Positions 31,004-42,207 of a stretch of DNA of 64,000 nt are shown here, piece after piece. Under the pieces are notes generated by a model, which saw only the letters and a list, made by a program, of their open reading frames with translations, made no database searches and had not been told where the DNA came from. How positions within the stretch are numbered: position 1 is the first letter of the stretch; the number at the start of each line of letters is the position of its first letter. A program made the translations under genes and the position numbers. The DNA comes from Tilletia caries (lineage: Eukaryota; Basidiomycota; Exobasidiomycetes; Tilletiales; Tilletiaceae), in contig JALUTQ010000046.1 in NCBI GenBank assembly GCA_032718865.1, positions 1,488,001 through 1,552,000 on the forward strand, in the 5' to 3' direction.

Positions 31004-31299
31004 GATGGATGCGAAAGGCTTCTACGTCCGGGCGAATGGAATTTTTGAGATTGATTTCAGGATCATGCCGAGTCATTTTGAGAGAGTCATCGAGCCTATG
31101 CTACAGGTGGTGGAGAAGAAAAATGCGAAGGAGAGTGCTTTCAGGCCCGCTACATGCTGGTTCTTGATGAGGAAGAGCGAAACCGAAAAGAAGGAAAGGA
31201 CGTTCAGAAGTTCTGGAGATGGCCAAGTTGACAGCGGCCCGCGAATGCATCCCGAGAATTCAAATGGTTTGCAAGCCTGAGAGTCATCTTTTTGTACTA

Positions 31300-31400
31300 G
31301 TAACCATGTCTGAGAAATGCAATCTTCCTTACTTAGTAGCCTCGGACAGCTCTGATCACTTCCTGCGCCCGACCACGACCATGATGTCCGACACAGGGGG
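31300..31400 (+). repeat. Paralogous empty site of the 9.7-kb hAT element
   Basis: The sequence from TGAGAAATGCAATCTTCC through CTTAGTAGCCTCGGACAG to GACCACGACCATG and ACAGGGGG matches the two flanks of the big element joined together (31654-31689 plus 41385-41439), with a handful of differences and only one copy of the 8-bp target (AGCCTCGG here). It is therefore an uninterrupted relative of the insertion site. Confidence 0.92.
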
Positions 31401-32202
31401 AACCTCTGCCATTTTTTTATTTAGATTGACAGAAATGATAGATACAGTCTTCCTGATCATTGATGTCAAGGTTTGAGAGAGAAAGAGCCAGAATTGAGCA
31501 AGATTTATAAGGGCAAACTCTGCGGCCACTTAGTACCCCTGCGCGCGAGCCACATATCGAGCCAGAACTCGCCAGTGCCGCTTCTCGCAAGCATCAAGCA
31601 TCACACGATAGTCAATGACACTCTCACGCACCTTCCTGTATTAGCAATCATTTGTGAGAAATGCAATCTACCTTACTTAGTAGACTCGGCAAGGCTCGGC
31701 AACTATCTTCACTATGTAACTATGATAACTATATAGTTATAACTAATAGTGATAACTTGACTATACTTTGGGCGGCGGAGCCGCCTAGAAAAAATAGTGG
31801 CTATAACTATCTCAGATCGGCGCGGAGTGACTAATAGTTATGATAGTTATGCCTTTATGCGGCGGACGCGCAGTTCACTTGGGCAGGCCGAGATAGCTAC
31901 TAGATAGTGGCTACCCAGTAGCTGCCTAGTAGCTGGGAGTCACTCCTTGCCACTAGTAGTAGCTATCTTACCTAGCCACTAGCCTCATCAACTGACGAGC
32001 GACTGCTAGTCGATCCGAGTAGCTCTAGTTCGCTGGCTGTGGCTAGGAGTCGCTTTCTCAGTACTGCCGCCGCCCTGCCTCAATCAATCCCTCATCTCAT
32101 GCGCAGGCGCTCCCACCTTGCATCCACCACCTCCCTTCCATGGATGGCTCATTCTGATGTCTTCCAGCACCGCTCCACCACATCGTCGCACCGAAGAACG
32201 TG

Positions 32203-34594
32203 ATGGTGTCCTACCGCGAGCTGTCCAAGGAGCCATACTGTGCGCTCTCGGCTCAGAACATCAAAGTTATTCGCGCGTACGGACAGAAACAATGCTGGCC
32301 TGATCAATCCTACGATTTCGACGACATCCAAGCCCGACTGTTCTCAATACCAGATTCCCCCGCCCCGCGGTGTATTGCCTCGCTATGGGCCGCCTACCGC
32401 GATGTCGACCTTCTCCAGCTCCCGGTGGACGTCAGAGGGGCTGGTCCGTACGGACCGATGGGAGAAGAATGTCTGGCGCAGGCCGCATGTCAAGAATTCC
32501 TCACCCTCGACAGTACGGATCCCGAACGCGCTCGGCGTCTTGCTCTTCTCGCCGTTACGGAGCTAGCTGAGCTTCTCCTATCGTCGGACACCGGATTTCC
32601 TTTGGCCACCGTCCGACGGTCGATTTTCGATGGTATCCTGTACGGACGAGTCATGTTTCCCATACTTCCCTTAGCCGTGCTCTCCCGCCGCGACTCGCCA
32701 AGACCCAACTCCTTTTACGACCTCATGGATCACGACGCAGATCCATCCGATCCGGTTTCCCCTTCGCAACCGGATTGCGGTTACGATTTCGACAACTCTT
32801 CCGCGCCAGACGTGTTCCTAACCCCGCCTGCCCCCCCGACCGTCTCCCCCTCCGTCCGTCGTTCCTGCCTCCCCGAAGCCGCTGGTCCGACTCATTCCGA
32901 CCAACCTCCCAAGGCAACGTTCGAGGCTGGCCCGTCGAATGCGGCTGCGACGGCAACCCCGGAGATTGCGGACGACTTAACTATAGCCCCAACCCTGGCC
33001 ACCGCGGCGGGCTGCGATGCATCCTCGGAACGGGCGAACATAGACACGTCCACCGACCTCGTTGCGCTTCGGAAGCGGGAGGCCTGGATGAAGGTCGCGT
33101 TAGCCGCCGCTTTTCGTAAAGGGTATGTTCTAGCTGAAGAGCTTTGGGATCCTTCCGAAGGAGGGGTGGGTCGGGTTATCTCCCCTCCGTCATCGACGGA
33201 GCTCGCTGCTATCCACGAATTGAGTGGTCAGATGGACGTGATGGATGCAGACACGACCGAGGCGGCGATTGGCGAGCCTGGGGTTACCGAGTCCACAGGT
33301 TCCGACGGGGCGACTCTCCGCGTGATGGTCGAAGTTGGCGTTTCTCCTCCCTCGCGGATGATAGGGTCCCCACCTCACTGGGTCGCGCAGCCGTCTTGGC
33401 TTCCCATCAGCATCTGCTCCCCCCCGCTGTGGCCAATAACTACGGCCCACTTTATCAACCCTTCGACCCACCGCCCTACTACCAAAGCTTCGGTCGATAC
33501 GAGCAGGGCGATCGCATCGGCGCCGGCGTACATGGGCAAGTGTACAGATGCCGGGATCGCCTCACTCAACAGGTCGTCGCTGTCAAGTGGTCGAAATGCG
33601 AGGAAGCCAGACGGCCTCCGAATTCGACGCTACGGGAGATCAGCGCGCTGAAACGACTGCAACACAAGAGCATCATGTACTTGCATGCGGTAGTGTACGA
33701 CGGCATCGGAATCGGTCTCGTCTTCGGATTGGCTCAGCAAGATCTACGGGCGGTCATCAATCTGCGTGGCCGCGGATCTCTCAACGTCCCTCTCATCAAG
33801 CTGTATATGCGCCAGCTCCTGGAGGGGTTACGGTCCGTGACTCGAACGACTAATTTTTCTTATTAGTTGGCATACCTCCACGAACAAGTGAGTATCACTA
33901 CGTCTTGTAACCTGGTTTCCGATCCTCTTCATACTGATCGCACACAACTTCGTGAAGACGTGAACGTCTTCGCCACTAGAAGTACGTGCATCTGGACATC
34001 AAACCAGAGAACATCCTTTTGAATGCCGATCATCGCCTGAGGATCACGGACTTTGGTCTGGCGCGCCGGGCGGGTCCAGCAGGTGGTCAGAGGTCCGTTG
34101 TCACGATGTCGTATCGTCCTCCTGAGGTGTTCTTTCGTACACCCACCTTCACCTCGGCCGTTGACGTATTCTCGGCAGGCGTTGTACTGGCAGAAATGTT
34201 GGGTTCAGTACCATGGAGCCAGTCGGCGTGGCAACCTCTGCCTTGCTTCCAACACATGCTGGGATACCTAGGGTGTGGACCTGGAGAGGTATGGCCCGGC
34301 GCGGATAACAACCCCGGTGTCTGGCATGGCGACGATGTCGTGGGAGACGAGCCGATGCTCCTCGCCAAGAAAGGCCGGATACGGTTCCAACCACGTCCTC
34401 GGCGTATCCCGCAAGACCTGCGGTGTGTCTTCGACCATGCTGGAGACCTTCTCAAGCTCGTTGATAAGTGCCTAGAAGTTGATCCAGAGCTTAGGCCGCG
34501 AGCGAAGCATCTGCTTCGGGCCCATCCTGCATTCCAGCGGGACCCTAAACCGGCCGTTTTCGGTGTGCGTCCAGCTGTTGGCAGTATTGTATAA
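32203..34594 (+). CDS. CDK-like protein serine/threonine kinase with a novel N-terminal region (hAT cargo)
   Basis: The N-terminal ~400 residues are unrecognised (PYCALSAQNIKVIRAYGQ, ARRLALLAVTELAELLLSS), with a low-complexity Pro/Ser/Ala middle. The kinase domain runs from about 33500: glycine loop GAGVHGQVYRC, VAVKW lysine, STLREISALKRLQH, catalytic loop HLDIKPENILL, DFGLA, MSYRPPEVFF, DVFSAGVVLAEM, and a closing R in PELRPRAKHLL. All phosphotransfer residues are present. The usual HRD arginine is Leu. The activation segment resembles CDK/CMGC kinases. A frame change sits at a C7 run near 33420. Introns: about 33837-33866 (only about 30 nt, so uncertain) and 33888-33979. The ATG at 32203 is the first in frame; no upstream ATG fits. 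Its substrate is unknown. Linkage to H3 in one element suggests, without proof, a chromatin target. Confidence 0.8.
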
Positions 34595-34619
34595 CAGAGG
34601 CATACCTTCGAAGCATAGA

Positions 34620-34868
34620 ACTTGAGCTGGTCTGTTCGATACAGCCATTGACTGCGACTTGTAGTGGCTAAACGGTGTGAATTAGTGGCATACAGCTACT
34701 GAGTGTGACTAGTAGTAGCTTGCAAGCTTCACGGAACCCGCGAAACTTCTCGTCACTACTAGCATTAGGTTGGTGATATAGTTGCTTCTAGTCACAGGTA
34801 GTCACAACTAGTCGCTATCATAGCCACTAGTAGCTACAGACAGTGCCTAGTAGTCGCTAGTTCACACC
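34620..34868. repeat. Internal tract of the hAT family word, between kinase and BED-like gene
   Basis: Dense variants of AGTGACTAG, TAGTAGCTAC and CTAGTCACA in both orientations, like the element's subterminal regions but without the CAAGGCTCGGCAA terminus. It begins about 30 bp after the kinase stop. Confidence 0.8.
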
Positions 34869-35064
34869 CTGAGAAGTGCAAAGATTATGTAATTGATTAC
34901 AGCAAAACACCACAACAGATGGGACTCTTCCCGTCGTTCCCAACGTCCATACGTCCATCAACGTCTACACTCATCGAAGCAAAGTCATCCATACACACGC
35001 AGTCGTCGATAAACACGCTTCTCTGTTTAAACAACACGCCTTCAACAGTCCGCGCACCGCATCG

Positions 35065-35817
35065 ATGGCTAGGCGCGTTCCACGAGATCAACGAGTCCTC
35101 TGCGTTGTTCGCAACGAAGGGGGCTGGACGGACACCCTCACGCAAGGGGGCCGGGTTTATTCGCGAGTGGAAGGAGGAGAACTCGGTGTGGTCCTATCAC
35201 AAGGTCGACTTCGTCTGGAGGTACCTTCCGACGACGAGGATGCTGCGGGTACTCATACCGTTAGCGCAACCGGTCCGCCGAGCTTGTTGAGCTTGTCTTT
35301 TCCCCCCGTCGTCAACCCTGGCGCGACAGCGATCACAGGACCCGAAGAAATGCGTTCTAACACAGGCAACCTTACCACGCCATACAGCGGTGAAGGAGGA
35401 GCAGTTGGAGGCGTACCGAACGACTCCTCGGACGAAGAGGACGTCGCCGCACCTCCTCCTGGGCAGTCAGCCACTACGACCACCGTTCCCAGCCTGGACC
35501 TACCTCTGCACGCCGCCCACCTCACCCTTCAAAATGCGCGGAGCCCAGCGGCGCGACGGGCGCTCAAGGGTACAGCCACTGGTCGAATGACGCAGTGACA
35601 CCTTGAAGACGTGGTCGTCTACGACCCCGATACACCTCCAGCGGGGATCAAGAGGACGAAAGGCAGCAAACGGGCAAAGTTGGACAAGGACGGAAAACAG
35701 ATCAAGGAGATTTGGCGGTGCCGACGAACAGGATGCGATGCCGTTCGCACGGTGGATCCCGGAGTGACGAACGTCATGACTCGCCATACTGCCACCAACT
35801 GCCCTTCTCCGAGTTGA
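35065..35817 (+). pseudogene. BED-like zinc-finger reading frame with one in-frame TGA (hAT cargo)
   Basis: From ATG 35065 one frame runs to TAG-free codons until a TGA at about 35596, then continues in the same frame to 35817. The first part is acidic and Ser/Pro-rich (RLRLEVPSDDEDAAG, NDSSDEEDVAAPPPG). The second part has a basic lead (KRTKGSKRAKLDKDGKQIKE) and a compact Cys/His unit, IWRCRRTGCDAVRT then VMTRHTATNC, which fits a BED-type C-x4-C..H-x5-C finger. BED fingers are DNA-binding modules common in hAT transposases. Either the TGA is a mutation, or translation or splicing starts downstream. Possible role: binding the tiled words. That is inference. Confidence 0.5.
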
Positions 35818-36046
35818 TGCATCGCCCACAGCGCTCATATCAATGCCTCGGCCATCGGTTCCACCCCTTCCATCCTTCGTCAGACGTCAATCACGTCAGA
35901 CAAGGGGCGCATTCAAGTTCAACACAATCAACAGAGCATGGCATTGTCAAACGGTGAGAAGCGGTAGCAGAGTGGTGGGGTTACATCGAGCATAGACGAT
36001 AACCGATGGCGCTGTCTGAGTCTTGGGGTAACGCGGTTGGTGCCGG

Positions 36047-36617
<571 letters not shown>

Positions 36618-37049
36618 GGTAATGTCGGAAGAGCGGCTTTGGGGTGAAGGATGGAGAGAAGTAGGTGGTAGATGCGAGGACTGCAGGATGCGAAGGAGAT
36701 AGAAGGGATCGAAGGATGAGGAGATGGGGAGGGGAGGAAGAAGTCAGGGAGTCCGGCCTGCTTTTATAACCCTTCCTCCCAACTGGAATGGCAGGCGGCG
36801 CTCGGCCTTGTAGCACGCTGCCAGAACCCCCACATAACCTCTGCGCAAGTACCCTATTCCCAGACTAACCTCGCCGCAATCTGCGCCAGAACCCCTGCGG
36901 AACCCTCTCAGAACCCTTTTCTGTCGAAACCGCATCGGCGACGTACATGGCGCCACGTTCAGTGCCACGTCATGCCTCATGACATCCTCTTGATGTAGTC
37001 GCCTGCATCAGCGTCGATACAGGCGATATTTGACCCATAAATCTGTAAA
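36618..37049. other. Upstream region of the H3 variant gene
   Basis: About 430 bp of non-coding sequence between the H3 start and the next word tract. It is likely to hold the H3 promoter. No core element was identified with confidence. Confidence 0.4.
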
Positions 37050-37280
37050 GTATGCCCCATTAGCGACTGGTAGCTACTCCTTGTCACTACTTGTAGCTTC
37101 GTAGTCACTCCCAGTCACTACCTGTAGCTATCTAGCCACTATTTCGGACCTTACATTGATAACTCCGCTTGGAATCAGTCACTATTTGCGGCTCGACAGC
37201 TACTATTTCGGAACTGGGAGTTACTGGTTGCGGCTACAAGTAACTACTAGCTACTGATAGTCACTTTTTTGGTCTCTTCT
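37050..37280. repeat. Internal tract of the hAT family word, between H3 and transposase genes
   Basis: Tiled with TAGTCACT, GTAGCTACT and CAGTCACTACCTGTAGCT-type words. It lies between the 3' end of the transposase gene (37312) and the upstream region of H3. No terminus motif is present. Confidence 0.8.
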
Positions 37281-37311
37281 AGAATCGATGCAGTGTAAAA
37301 CCCCACTGAGA

Positions 37312-40300
37312 TTACTTGCGAGGCTGCTTGGCTCCTCGGGGTGCCTTGCCGACGCGCTCAGGTTGGCTGGGAGTCGCAGCGGGAGTAGCAGCGGTCAAGG
37401 AGGCGGTGAAGCCTCTGGCAAGAAGATGACTGGTGACGACGAGCTGTTCCAAAGCTGTCGGACCCAGCGGACGGCGTCCTGACACGTAACGTCCAGCACG
37501 CGAGAAGACGCGCTCAACCTCGGAAGTCGATCCGGGTGCAGAGAAGACCCTACGAGCAAGCTTGGCGAGAGTTGGGTAAAGAGCCTCGTGTGATTTCCAC
37601 CAACCCAGCACCGTATCACCAGGGACCTTTGACCCCTTCTCGGCTAGTCGATAAAGGTTCCGATTCGCAAGGTAGGCGTCTTCCTCCGTCTGCTCGGCCC
37701 GGATGGTCGCCGCTGAGCTGGCATTCGGCAGCTCGCGCCTCCACTTTTTCGGAAGAACAGACTTATGCTTGGAGGAACCTGGAACGGCGGGCTCGGACGG
37801 ACCAGATGGGCTGTCAGAGAGTTCTCGCACCTCTTCATTGAGCAATGTCTTGACGCGTTCCACTTTGTCCGGGTAGTCGGCTTCGAAAGGGTCGAGGCGG
37901 TATCGTGGGTGGAGGACGCCAGCGAGAAGCAGCGTCTTGTTCTGAGCGGCCGCCTCCTGGTAACGTTTGATCTTGGTCCGCATCTGCATCAACCCAGTCT
38001 TCAGTTCCGCAGCAACGTCGCCGTTCTTGCTACCAGCCTCCTCGATCTCGACCGAGAGGATGTGAACGAGTTCGCCGAACCGATGTAAGACCAAGCAGGC
38101 GTTGCTCGCATTCCGCTCGAACAGCAATGTTTGCCGGTGCACATACGACGATACCAGCCGGATTTGTTGAGCAATATCGAAGTCGCGCTCCGTCAGGCCG
38201 ATCGCGGTGACCTTGGGGCGAGTGGAGTTCTTGCTGTAGAGCAACAGGCCTTCTCGGATCTTGAGTGCGGCCTGCACCTGTTTGTAACGGCTGTTCCATC
38301 TCGTTTTTCAGCTTGGGAGGAACCTTGTCGACCAGCCTGGGGTTGTCATGATCGCGGTAGGCCATGGACATCCACTTCTTAAACTCTCGCAGCGAATCGG
38401 ACGAGCTGTAGATCTGGGTGACGACGCGGGCGATCTTGTTCAGAGGATTGGCCAAATCTTCGTCGTCCTCGCCCTCGACGTCGGCCGCTCTCGATTTGGT
38501 GCCCTCGCCTTTATCCCCCTGTTCGGCATCATCATTACCTTCGTTACCGCCCTCTCCAGGCCCTCCGTCTTCTTCGTCTTCCTCAACCACCGTCGCCACT
38601 TGCAGCGAACGTCCGCAAACATCACAAGGGCCTCCTCCGCTTCCGGATCGTCTGGCTCCAGTTCGCCTTCACGAACCCCTCCCGCCTGAACAACCGCAGC
38701 ATCATCTCCAGCCCCTCCCTTCTCTCCTTCGGCACCTCCGATTCCGTTGCCCGCAGAGGTGATTTCGGTCTCAGCGGCACCTTCGTCGTCCGACAGCGGC
38801 TCGTTATCCGAGTCATCAACGGGATCGTCGGCAACGGACTCCTTGGACTCCTCTGGGTTATCCGCGGACGCACGAAGAACACCATCATTGGCATCGGCTT
38901 TGAGGCCCATTCCGCGATAGAAGTCGACCATGCCTCGATTGAGGACATGGTTAAAGCAAAAGATGTTGTGGTCCCCGCGTCGATGATCAACCCGCCTTCT
39001 GAAGGTCGTCTCTATCCTTGGCGAATTCGTATTCGAGAGCGTCGCACATCCGCCTGTTCGCCGAGGCGGCGTCGCCGACGAGAATGCCGGACCACAGATC
39101 GAGCAGGTTGTGCTCTGAAAGAGCGCGGATAAGGTGCCCAGCGAGAGCAGCTCCGGTGTGTGGACCGCGTAAGACGGTGAAGCTGAGGATAAACTGCTGG
39201 AAACTCCAGTCGGTGTCAACGTAGTTGATGACGAAGGCGAGGAACGTGTATCGCCGAGACGGCGACGTCCAGCCGTCGTGGGAGACACTGAAGGTGAGCT
39301 TATTCCGCTTTAAATGATCAACCGCTTCGCGGAGGATCTCTCCGTGGGCGGCTTCGAGGTCGCGACGAACCGTCCGGGCCGAGGTGAGCGCCGGAGAGAG
39401 GGAAGGGTTGATTGTCCCTGAAGTGGGGGTTCTGAGGCTCGGTGAACGGCTGGTTCGACGCGATAACCCACTTGAGTACCAGTCGGCGTACTTCGGTGAT
39501 CTTGGCCTCCGTCGCCTGAGCTTTCTGTGAGCTCATCCAACCGTCGAGTCCTTGCTGACCCCGTCCCGGCCGAACCAATGGAGTCGAGAAAGATGACATG
39601 GCGGGCGATGCGAGTTTGTCCTTGCCGGCGTCTTGATTCGTGCGCTGGAAAGTCCCGGCGAAAGACTTGTCAATGGGGTCGAACAGCCGGCTGCAGAACG
39701 AGCTGTTGACCTTCTGATTGAGATGTAAGGCCAAGTTCGAGCGGTTCTCCGGATGGGCGGTGTAGTGGCCACCGCAGAGACGGCACTGCCAAGTCTCGTC
39801 CGTACCGACGTACTTCTCGCCGGTCCGGCGAGTCTTGGGCTTCTTGGTCGCCCGGACGAACTTGAAGAACCGCGTGGATGTCCGATTCTCCATCTCGGGG
39901 AGATCGTCATCCTCGTCATCACCCTCCGAACCCTTGTCCTGTTGATCGACCTCGCCGGACTGGGTTGATGCGGTCTCGCCGGCCGTGCGTGTGCGAGCCG
40001 ACGGGCCGCGCAGCTCCTCCTCTTCTTCGGAGGTCATGCCCCCGTGGGAACCTGAGTCGGACCCTGGCTTCCCCGACCTGGCCTTTGTCATGACCCGTTT
40101 CTCCGACGCCGTAAGGGCGCGGCGCTTGTCGGACAGCAAAGGGTTGGTGGTCTTGCTGGTCGAGGACTGAGTTTTCTTCGGGGGGGAGCCTTGGGCGGGA
40201 CCGCCTTGCCCTTCCCCTTCGAGCGCCCAGGAGGAATGGGGCGCTCGGTCTCGTTGCCGTCTGAGCCGGTGGTGGGGGCGCCCTTCGGCGCAGCCACATA

Positions 40301-40953
40301 GCGAGGCTGCTTCGCTTGCCGGATGGCCGTGGCGCTCCCAGATGCTGCCGTTCCCTGCCGGCCTGATGATCGCCCCTCGCCGTCGCCGTCGGTCGCATAG
40401 TCGGAAAGGCCGCTGGGCGCCCGACGCCGACGCTTGCCGAGTGCCGACTCGCCCGCCTGGTAACCCTTGAGCAGCTGCCGACTGTTGCCGACAGTGGGAT
40501 CCGCCTGGAAGGCGGCCCACAGCTTGTCCCCTTCTTGCGTGGCAGACGCGGGCTGAGGGACAATCAGGGGGACAATCAGGCGTGAGTCGACAGTGCAATG
40601 AGTAATGACCACGGCAAGGGTTAGAAAGAACTCACCATAATGGCCCAGCAATCTGACGTGGTCGTCAAGCCGTCGGTGGACTTGGCCTCGTCGAGTCCGC
40701 CTAAGAATGCGCCAAAGTTCTTGCGGCGCAGAGGTCCGAGAGAGAGGGCGTCGAGTTGTTCGCCGGCCTGCATTAACGTGAGATCGCCGAATAAGTAAGA
40801 GCAGGCGATGTCGAAGCACCGCCGGTCTTGCTCGGCTGGCGCGATCGCGGCGGAGGCGGCGGCATTGTCTGGCTGGTCTTGTTCGGCGGCGGCCTCGCGT
40901 TGCGCGACGGCCTGGGTTACGAACTTGGGCAAGGCCCACTCGTTGCTCGTCAT
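37312..40953 (-). pseudogene. hAT transposase, several homopolymer frameshifts
   Basis: It catalyses cut-and-paste transposition with 8-bp target duplications. Exon 1 is 40953-40637, and a clean intron (GTGAGT to CTCAG) joins it to an exon from about 40555. A Ser/Lys-rich linker leads to a BED-like finger, TWQCRLCGGHYTAHPENRSN. RNase H core: TFSVSHDGWTSPSRRYTFL (first Asp), ILVGDAASANRRMCDALEY (second Asp) and DHNIFCFNHVLNRGM. A long acidic insert and TRWNSRYKQVQAALKIREG follow. The C-terminal dimerisation domain is VPGDTVLGWWKSHEALYP and STSEVERVFSRAGRYVSG. Joining these blocks requires one-base shifts in a C7 run (about 40175), a GGG (about 39428), a GGG (about 38997) and an A5 run (about 38308), and one in the acidic insert. 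It is either decayed or mis-assembled; the shifts are all at homopolymers. Confidence 0.85.
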
Positions 40954-41439
40954 GTCGGATGCCAGTCTTGGGCTGGGCGATAGAGTGGAGAGTTGCGGTG
41001 AGGGGGGATATGGAATAGTGGCAGGCTGTGGCAGCTTGTGGACTCTGGGAGTCCGAGGATTGGCGTGAAAAGTTTCAAGTAAGAAGCCACAGACTGTGAC
41101 GTGACTCGATGGTCACTGGGAGTCACTGTAGCTGCTAGTTCACGTGACCGTAATTTGCACTGAAATAGTTACTAGTAGCTACTACGAGCCAATATAGCGA
41201 CTATTTCACCAAAAAGCCTGCCAAAATTTTTGCACATCTGAAATAGTAACTATTAGTTTTTATAGTGGCTAGGTCTCACTTGACTATACTATCTCGCGCC
41301 GGGGCGACCACTCACTATAACTTGACTATACTATTTCAAAAAAAAAATGGTAACTCTAGTAGCTTGCCGAGCCTTGAGACTCGGACAGGTCCGATCACTT
41401 CCTCCGCCCGACCACGACCATGCTGTCCGGTACAGGGGG

Positions 41440-42207
41440 TAAGGATGAGCCCGGAGCGCCCCGGAGTGCTCCGTACTCCGGGGCCCATACTCCGGGGCGC
41501 TCCGCTGATTTTCTGTGGTGCTCCGTGCTCCGTCTCTTTTCAGAGTTACACCAGCATCTTACTCCGTACTCCGTCACGATAAGGAGCACCAGAGAAAACT
41601 TACTCCGTGCTCCGTCAGAATATGAAGTTTCAGAAAGTCTACTCCGTACTCCGTAGCTACGGAGCCCGGATAATCCGGGGGAGCTCCGTACTCCGGGAGA
41701 TGATCTCACAAATCTCGAAATATGGTACGATTTCAGAAATGTGTATGCTCATGATCAAGCTTGTAGCAGCTGTGGTTAAGAGAACAGGCTGAGAGCGCTT
41801 GAAGAGTTCTTTCGGTAAGATATAGACTGCGAGATGAGATTTGTGAAAATAAATTTTGAAAATTGACCCCCAAATACCCCCAAAATATCCATGTTTATGG
41901 AAAATCACTTTCCTTATGAGAAAGATGTGGAGGTCCCGGAGCGCCCCGGACTCCGGGGGTAACTCCGTACTCCGTCACTTTCACAGGTGTTTACTCCGTA
42001 CTCCGGGGAATTTTTCGAAGCGCCCAAAGGTCAGCTCCGTGCTCCGGGAAATTCCTTGCGATGCTCAAACGTCTGCTCCGTACTCCGGCAACGGTGAGGT
42101 AACCTCTCGATTCTCACTCCGTACTCCCGGCTCCCCCGGAGTGCGGCCCCGGATAACCGGGGCGCTCCGGCAAAGCGGCTCCGGGGCTTACTCCGTGCTC
42201 ATCCTTA
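41440..42207. mobile_element. 768-bp palindrome-tiled element (CCGGAGTACTCC family), copy 1
   Basis: The ends are TAAGGATGAGCCCGG and GTGCTCATCCTTA. The body is dense in ACTCCGTACTCCG words and reverse complements. No matching 8-bp duplication: the left flank is ACAGGGGG and the right GTTACATT. The left flank belongs to the broken empty-site repeat. A close copy is at 55041-55756. Confidence 0.85.

What the first reader, a model, noticed from the sequence alone, without database searches (positions are those of the whole stretch)
31690..41376. A hAT-type transposon that carries a histone H3 gene and a protein kinase
Seen directly: 13-bp terminal inverted repeats, a perfect 8-bp duplication (AGACTCGG), a paralogous empty site at 31300-31400 lacking the whole 9,687 bp, and inside it a CDK-like kinase, a BED-like finger, an intron-containing histone H3 and a hAT transposase. 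Known hAT elements usually carry only a transposase, and I know of no described transposon with its own core histone. Inference: the element may alter chromatin at its copies, or time transposition through H3 and the kinase.
Basis: partly seen in the sequence, partly recalled or inferred. Interest (0 to 1): 0.95.

Follow-up and report, generated by a model that had tools for sequence, protein, structure and literature searches.

The report
Jumping genes carrying tail-altered histone H3
In a wheat-bunt type fungus (Tilletia), several kinds of jumping gene carry their own copy of a chromosome-packing protein, histone H3, nearly always altered at the spot that cells use to mark and silence jumping genes, which suggests that the histone helps them to escape silencing.

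Summary
The 9,687-bp hAT element has 13-bp TIRs, an 8-bp TSD and a paralogous empty site. Five long copies (98.3-99.4% identical over aligned bases) sit at five loci, 5 of 5 with their own perfect TSD; 4 of 5 keep H3, 5 of 5 the kinase region. It is real cargo.

What looks new lies mostly outside the window. Besides two canonical H3 genes the genome search gave 21 further H3 loci; 16 of 21 lie within 7 kb of a hAT, KDZ or tnp2 transposase domain. A 12.2-kb KDZ element carries an H3 in four copies, 4 of 4 with a perfect TSD. A finger-like partner gene recurs. At 19 of 21 loci the ARKS motif around H3 K9 is broken (K9F, K9R, K9Q or R8K); K4 stays. In one family the altered tail itself is under purifying selection. 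SUV39- and HP1-type domains exist in the genome. In Neurospora an extra H3 gene with K9R or K9L overrides silencing.

Best reading: mobile, silencing-resistant histones as transposon counter-defence. Structure is shown; expression and function are inferred. In the window copy only H3 reads intact.

The parts
31690..41376 (.). hAT element, 9,687 bp
   Evidence: TIRs, TSD, empty site and five long copies
31682..31689 (+). target site duplication, left copy, AGACTCGG
41377..41384 (+). target site duplication, right copy, AGACTCGG
31690..31702 (+). terminal inverted repeat, left, 13 bp
41364..41376 (-). terminal inverted repeat, right, 13 bp
31285..31400 (+). paralogous empty site outside the element
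   Evidence: joined flanks align over 116 bp, 86%, no gaps
32203..34594 (+). kinase gene: N-terminal domain without a Pfam family, then a CDK-like kinase domain; intron 33888-33979; frame interrupted in this copy, 39-bp insertion at 33827-33865
   Evidence: PF00069, CDK2 as best solved relative, comparison of copies, T. controversa P0121, splice signals
35065..35817 (+). finger-like protein gene, one in-frame TGA in this copy; relatives at 15 other places of the genome
   Evidence: no Pfam family
36047..36617 (-). histone H3 variant, 135 aa, exons 36617-36515, 36441-36225, 36134-36047; tail with K9F and K18L
   Evidence: T. controversa P0026 differs in one residue
37312..41112 (-). hAT transposase gene, broken in this copy (six pieces in three frames)
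   Evidence: PF05699 at E 1e-12

Best explanation
A 9.7-kb hAT transposon of a Tilletia fungus carries three cargo genes besides its transposase: a tail-altered histone H3, a finger-like protein and a CDK-like kinase. It is one of several DNA-transposon families, of three superfamilies, in this genome that carry or lie beside H3 genes whose tail can no longer serve as a normal H3K9-methylation substrate. Proposed mechanism: the element expresses its H3; the variant keeps the histone fold and K4 and is built into chromatin, globally or at the element. A nucleosome with F, R or Q at position 9, or K at position 8, is not methylated by the SUV39-type enzyme and does not recruit HP1. Such nucleosomes interrupt silencing, so the transposase can be expressed and the ends stay accessible. 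The finger-like protein may target the histone; the kinase may add cell-cycle control or phosphorylate H3. Shown: element structure, copies, TSDs, co-mobility in hAT and KDZ elements, tail changes, selection on the histone core and on one family's altered tail, presence of SUV39- and HP1-type domains. Inferred: expression, incorporation, anti-silencing effect, roles of finger-like protein and kinase.
For: Co-mobility: hAT family, 5 of 5 copies with TSD; KDZ family, 4 of 4. 16 of 21 non-canonical H3 loci and 0 of 2 canonical ones within 7 kb of a hAT, KDZ or tnp2 domain. ARKS at 7-10 broken at 19 of 21 loci, kept in 2 of 2 canonical genes; K4 kept in the 20 of 21 tails that can be read there. 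Altered tail of family D conserved: 5 of 79 nonsynonymous against 19 of 29 synonymous sites changed, p 7e-10. Two Pre-SET and one chromo-shadow domain in the genome. [quoted passage not shown] S. pombe: K9M in one of three H3 genes acts dominantly (listing abstract).
Against: No expression data. Two loci keep ARKS (one family C copy and relic H). Young hAT copies show no purifying selection on H3 (4 of 301 nonsynonymous and 1 of 104 synonymous sites between window and C32), and one hAT copy has a stop, another a deletion in H3. K9F, K9Q and R8K are not among the mutants in the passages that I saw. Loss of K9 could follow from loss of constraint. The finger-like gene also occurs at three places without H3 nearby.
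Confidence: 0.55

Rival explanations
1. Ordinary transduplication: transposons captured host H3 genes by chance and amplify them as neutral passengers; tail changes are drift.
For: H3 capture by hAT without known use is published. Among young hAT copies there is no sign of purifying selection; C25 has a stop, C3 a deletion in H3.
Against: Core dN/dS 0.04-0.18 between families with dS mostly 0.7 or more; altered tail of family D conserved; changes within residues 1-17 concentrate on positions 8-9; H3 in two superfamilies shown by TSDs and near a third.
Confidence: 0.22
2. Host-beneficial or domesticated H3 variants: the variants do a job for the fungus and transposons only spread them.
For: Purifying selection fits host use as well; T. 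indica and T. horrida proteins also have altered tails.
Against: Many tail types in one genome, several near-identical copies per family at unrelated loci with TSDs, broken copies present.
Confidence: 0.1
3. One reading: H3 and kinase time transposition to a cell-cycle stage.
For: The kinase is CDK-like and its first 590 codons are open in two copies; the hAT H3 tail has a Ser-Pro pair that the canonical tails lack; Neurospora DIM-5 is inhibited by H3S10 phosphorylation.
Against: Kinase DNA was found only in this family and in one related hAT locus, where no H3 was seen in the 3.3 kb held; no kinase match in the KDZ and tnp2 loci searched.
Confidence: 0.07

Closest known systems
H3-like (H3L) transduplication by a hAT element in Pyrenophora tritici-repentis (Manning et al. 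2013, PMC3538342; passages and part 1 of its transduplication section read)
   Same: hAT element with TIRs, transposase, an H3-like gene and a further ORF of unknown function; many near-identical copies; ESTs for the H3-like gene; altered tail.
   Different: Ascomycete, 5.6 and 2.3 kb, no kinase mentioned in what I read, one superfamily; the text read does not speak of K9. I did not have its sequence.
H3 capture by a hAT element in Pseudocercospora fijiensis and relatives (Dhillon et al. 2019, PMC6710886; abstract, results and first part of discussion read)
   Same: hAT with 8-bp TSD, about 9.5 kb, H3 cargo, many copies.
   Different: There an intron-less copy, one or two per element, all inactivated by RIP; here introns kept, open frames, several superfamilies.
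TET/JBP genes carried by 11 DNA-transposon lineages in fungi (Kojima 2025, PMC12730594; abstract, passages and first part of discussion read)
   Same: One epigenetic gene type carried by several superfamilies, including hAT and KDZ; IS3EU families also with an alpha-kinase; proposed escape from silencing.
   Different: Cargo there is a DNA demethylating enzyme, here a substrate histone; the word Tilletia does not occur in its main text.
Ectopic H3 K9R, K9L and other tail mutants of Neurospora (Adhvaryu et al. 2011, PMC3248561; abstract and passages) and H3K9M of S. pombe (Shan 2016, PMC5030085; abstract start in listing; authors' name recalled)
   Same: An extra H3 gene with K9 replaced overrides silencing although wild-type H3 is present.
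   Different: Laboratory mutants; here natural genes on transposons, with F, Q and R8K besides R.

Membership tests
hAT superfamily transposon (window family) | 8-bp target site duplication | tested here: met
   5 of 5 long copies
hAT superfamily transposon (window family) | short terminal inverted repeats | tested here: met
   13 bp, perfect
hAT superfamily transposon (window family) | transposase with hAT dimerisation domain | tested here: met
   PF05699, E 1e-12
hAT superfamily transposon (window family) | RNase-H-like catalytic residues | not tested
   PF14372 matched only weakly, below its cut-off
KDZ transposon (family B) | KDZ transposase domain | tested here: met
   PF18758 in C30, C19, C5 and C23, 4 of 4
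KDZ transposon (family B) | flanking target duplication (8 bp recalled for KDZ) | tested here: met
   4 of 4 copies
tnp2 (Plavaka/EnSpm-like) transposon (family E) | TIRs and target duplication around H3 and transposase | tested here: inconclusive
   two copies compared at their edges, none seen; domain PF02992 at 5.6-6.2 kb from H3 in 3 of 3 copies
Histone H3 | complete histone fold and C-terminal helix | tested here: met
   135 aa, aligned over its whole length to canonical H3
Histone H3 | canonical tail with both ARKS motifs | tested here: not met
   ARFS at 7-10 and no second ARKS in the window family
H3 transduplication as in P. fijiensis | intron-less, RIP-inactivated H3 copies | tested here: not met
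   two introns and open frame in the window copy; RIP signature itself was not measured
H3K9-methylation-refractory histone | K9, or R8 needed by the methyltransferase, replaced | tested here: met
   19 of 21 non-canonical loci
H3K9-methylation-refractory histone | dominant loss of H3K9 methylation when expressed | not testable with these tools
   needs a laboratory fungus with its own H3 changed

The most novel reading that the evidence does not exclude
Fungal DNA transposons of three unrelated superfamilies share a mobile counter-defence module: an H3 that cannot be methylated at K9, plus a finger-like protein that brings it to the element. The module is exchanged between superfamilies, its tail exon recombining separately from the core, and works as a dominant block on heterochromatin, so that transposons replace the host's nucleosomes instead of fighting its enzymes.
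Probability: 0.35. Interest if true: 0.93.

Novelty: new variant of a known kind. Interest (0 to 1): 0.82.

Why it matters
Transposons are known to carry enzymes that act on silencing marks. A substrate histone that refuses the mark would be a different principle. The loss of K9 or its neighbour R8 in most carrier families makes the old question whether captured genes serve the transposon directly testable, and mutants in two model fungi already predict a dominant effect. The genome also offers a natural set of H3 tails on an intact fold for chromatin biology.

Tried and rejected
N-terminal domain of the kinase protein: one hit of 7,996 scored candidates, T. controversa P0121; that gene model joins kinase and finger-like protein, a real fusion or an annotation error. 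An intron first assumed between N-terminal domain and kinase was dropped when one search showed one open frame in two other copies.

Family E: sharp shared edges in C4 and C7, but no TIR or TSD; left open. H3 tree (25 rows): canonical genes cluster (92/91), KDZ and tnp2 do not form single groups, but deep forks are weak, so exchange between superfamilies and separate captures cannot be told apart. L012, L018, L019, L024 and L059 (broken or doubtful models) were left out of tree and dN/dS. The Fisher test (7 of 14 cells at positions 8-9 against 3 of 105 cells elsewhere in 1-17, p 6e-6) was typed from the alignment by eye, for 7 of 8 families: relic H, with ARKS intact, was left out and family C was scored by its commonest state. 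The binomial values (2e-16 for loci, 1.5e-8 for families) assume random, independent placement; transposons cluster and copies are related, so they overstate.

Rfam: no match in the window. No structure was predicted. I found no paper on transposon-borne H3 in Tilletia, or on H3 in KDZ elements; searches: open-access library only, listings capped.
Full report
Host. The window is G000:C40:1488001-1552000 of a 38.1-Mb genome in 40 contigs. The protein closest to the window H3 at full length (P0026, 99%) and the only relative of the kinase protein's N-terminal domain (P0121, 98%) are from Tilletia controversa. I take the host as a Tilletia of the wheat-bunt group; the species is not settled.

The element. 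Searches with its first kilobase, its H3 and its kinase gave five long copies: C40 (window), C32, C25, C30 and C3. Identity to the window copy over aligned bases is 98.3-99.4%. Each has its own perfect 8-bp duplication: AGACTCGG, GTTGTGCG, GAACTGGG, TGGTCGAG and GCCACGAC. H3 is present in four; C3 has a 1.3-kb deletion there, and the H3 of C25 has a stop in its first exon. Three internally deleted derivatives lie at C35, C5 and C25:650770, and 32 of the 41 matches cover only about the first 160 bp, as non-autonomous derivatives would. One search scored 40 of 101 candidates, so such counts are lower bounds.

Genes. Plus strand: a protein with an N-terminal domain without a Pfam family and a protein kinase domain, whose closest solved relative is CDK2. 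In the C32 and C3 copies both parts lie in one open frame of 590 codons; a related hAT locus, C32:808037 (L034), has the same arrangement and no H3 in the 3.3 kb held. Next comes the finger-like protein. Minus strand: H3, then the transposase with PF05699. In the window copy kinase, finger-like protein and transposase are interrupted; H3 alone reads intact. Other copies have longer open transposase frames, up to 978 codons.

The histone. Predicted protein: 135 aa, whole fold, tail MARTKQTARFSTGGKAPRLQLANKAEKSPSGVAG, so K9F, K18L and no second ARKS. T. controversa P0026 differs in one residue, so the gene is not an assembly error.

Beyond the window. The H3 search gave 26 matches at 23 loci. 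Two are canonical: C32:138353 with an H4 gene nearby, and C39:102821. The other 21 are altered or relic; I group them as A (hAT, 4), B (4), C (5), D (2), E (3), F, G and H (1 each). With all matches of the hAT dimerisation domain (74), KDZ (38) and tnp2 (54), 16 of 21 lie within 7 kb of one of them, a zone that covers 5.7% of the genome; the five misses are four of family C and relic H; of the canonical genes 0 of 2. Copies are related and transposons cluster, so shared structure is the stronger evidence.

KDZ element. Family B runs from C30:491463 to 503680, about 12.2 kb, begins CAGGCCCGGCAGGG and ends CCACAGGAG. Copies on C30, C5, C19 and C23 have the perfect duplications GTGAGCTG, AAACCCCA, TGGTCCAT and TGACGAGG, 4 of 4. 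Each holds a KDZ domain, an H3 with K9R (the C19 copy has a frameshift in its tail) and a finger-like gene. So H3 is cargo in a second, unrelated superfamily. Family E (C4, C7, C34) has H3 and a tnp2 domain 5.6-6.2 kb apart in 3 of 3; the end pieces of C4 and C7, 99% alike, put a shared unit of about 9.9 kb, but its edges show no TIR or TSD. For D, F, G and one C locus only nearness to a transposase is shown.

Partner protein. The finger-like protein has 16 places in the genome (18 matches): five in the hAT family and eleven others. Of these eleven, six lie within 7 kb of an altered H3, four of them being the copies of family B, the others F and D; one lies 6.4 kb from canonical gene 2 in a family B fragment; C22:1170695 lies 0.4 kb from an H3 exon match seen and 5.9 kb from a hAT domain. 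Three (C4, C15, C23:1062981) have no H3 nearby; two of these lie about 4 kb from a tnp2 domain.

Tail pattern. Residues 7-10 read ARKS in both canonical genes. Elsewhere: A ARFS (4 of 4), B ARRS (4 of 4), C ARQS (3 of 5), AKRS (1), ARKS (1), D AKKS (2 of 2), E ARRS (3 of 3), F ARRS, G AKKS, H ARKS (relic). So 19 of 21 lack K9 in its normal setting. K4 is kept in the 20 tails that can be read there. Within residues 1-17 the seven families used otherwise differ only at T3 (G), T6 (F) and K14 (D). The second ARKS (25-28) is absent from all of them.

Selection. Between families dS is 0.7 or more, near saturation, while core dN/dS is about 0.04-0.18 (55 comparisons, three core ones with dS beyond the method). 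Such pairs may include time spent in host genes. Family D is cleaner: its copies share 1.4 kb at 89% and both lie about 4 kb from a KDZ domain. Core: 12 of 230 nonsynonymous against 25 of 73 synonymous sites; altered tail: 5 of 79 against 19 of 29 (p 2e-9 and 7e-10). Against this, the few differences between young hAT copies show no such selection. In family C, C5 and C27 have nearly identical tail exons (dS 0.08) but saturated cores (dS 0.99), a hint that tail exons are exchanged on their own.

Machinery. The genome has two Pre-SET domains and one chromo-shadow domain, so SUV39-type enzymes and an HP1-type reader probably exist. Whether Tilletia marks transposons by H3K9 methylation was not tested.

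Mechanism. In Neurospora an extra H3 gene with K9R or K9L causes loss of DNA methylation despite wild-type H3; R8A abolishes DIM-5 activity in vitro; [quoted passage not shown] In S. pombe K9M in one of three H3 genes is dominant. The transposon changes fall on these residues, K14 in family D included, though K9F, K9Q and R8K were not among the mutants in the passages that I saw. I therefore think that the histones serve the transposons as silencing-resistant substrates or inhibitors. Expression, incorporation and effect are not shown. That the finger-like protein targets and the kinase regulates is inference.

Known or new. H3 capture by hAT is known, and so is carriage of one epigenetic gene by many superfamilies. 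I found no report of H3 in KDZ elements or in several superfamilies, nor of repeated K9/R8 loss; the searches are named in Tried and rejected. I rate it a new variant of a known kind.

Noticed in passing
L050:607-690 and L054 about 1900-2061: Further H3 tail relics: ARIS (K9 replaced by I) in L050 and an H3-tail-like stretch in an ORF of L054.
   Followed up: no
L016 against L023 (family C): Tail exons nearly identical (dS 0.08) while the H3 cores are saturated (dS 0.99), as if tail exons were exchanged separately.
   Followed up: partly
window 41440-42200: GC-rich stretch full of CTCCG-type short repeats beside the element, seen by eye; no repeat search was run on it.
   Followed up: no
G000:C32:806537-809847 (L034): Related hAT locus with the same N-terminal domain plus kinase and a hAT transposase end, without H3 in the stretch held.
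   Followed up: partly
P0118 (T. indica), P0069 and P0070 (T. horrida): H3 proteins with K9R and other tail changes in other Tilletia species; whether they lie on transposons is unknown.
   Followed up: no
window 36515-36617: The hAT H3 tail has a Ser-Pro pair (EKSPSG), the minimal CDK target (recalled), absent from both canonical tails; the element carries a CDK-like kinase.
   Followed up: no
L053 and L049: The two canonical H3 genes differ in intron positions: C32:138353 has its first intron near residue 15, C39:102821 has one right after the ATG and two near residues 35 and 108, the last two shared with most transposon H3s.
   Followed up: partly
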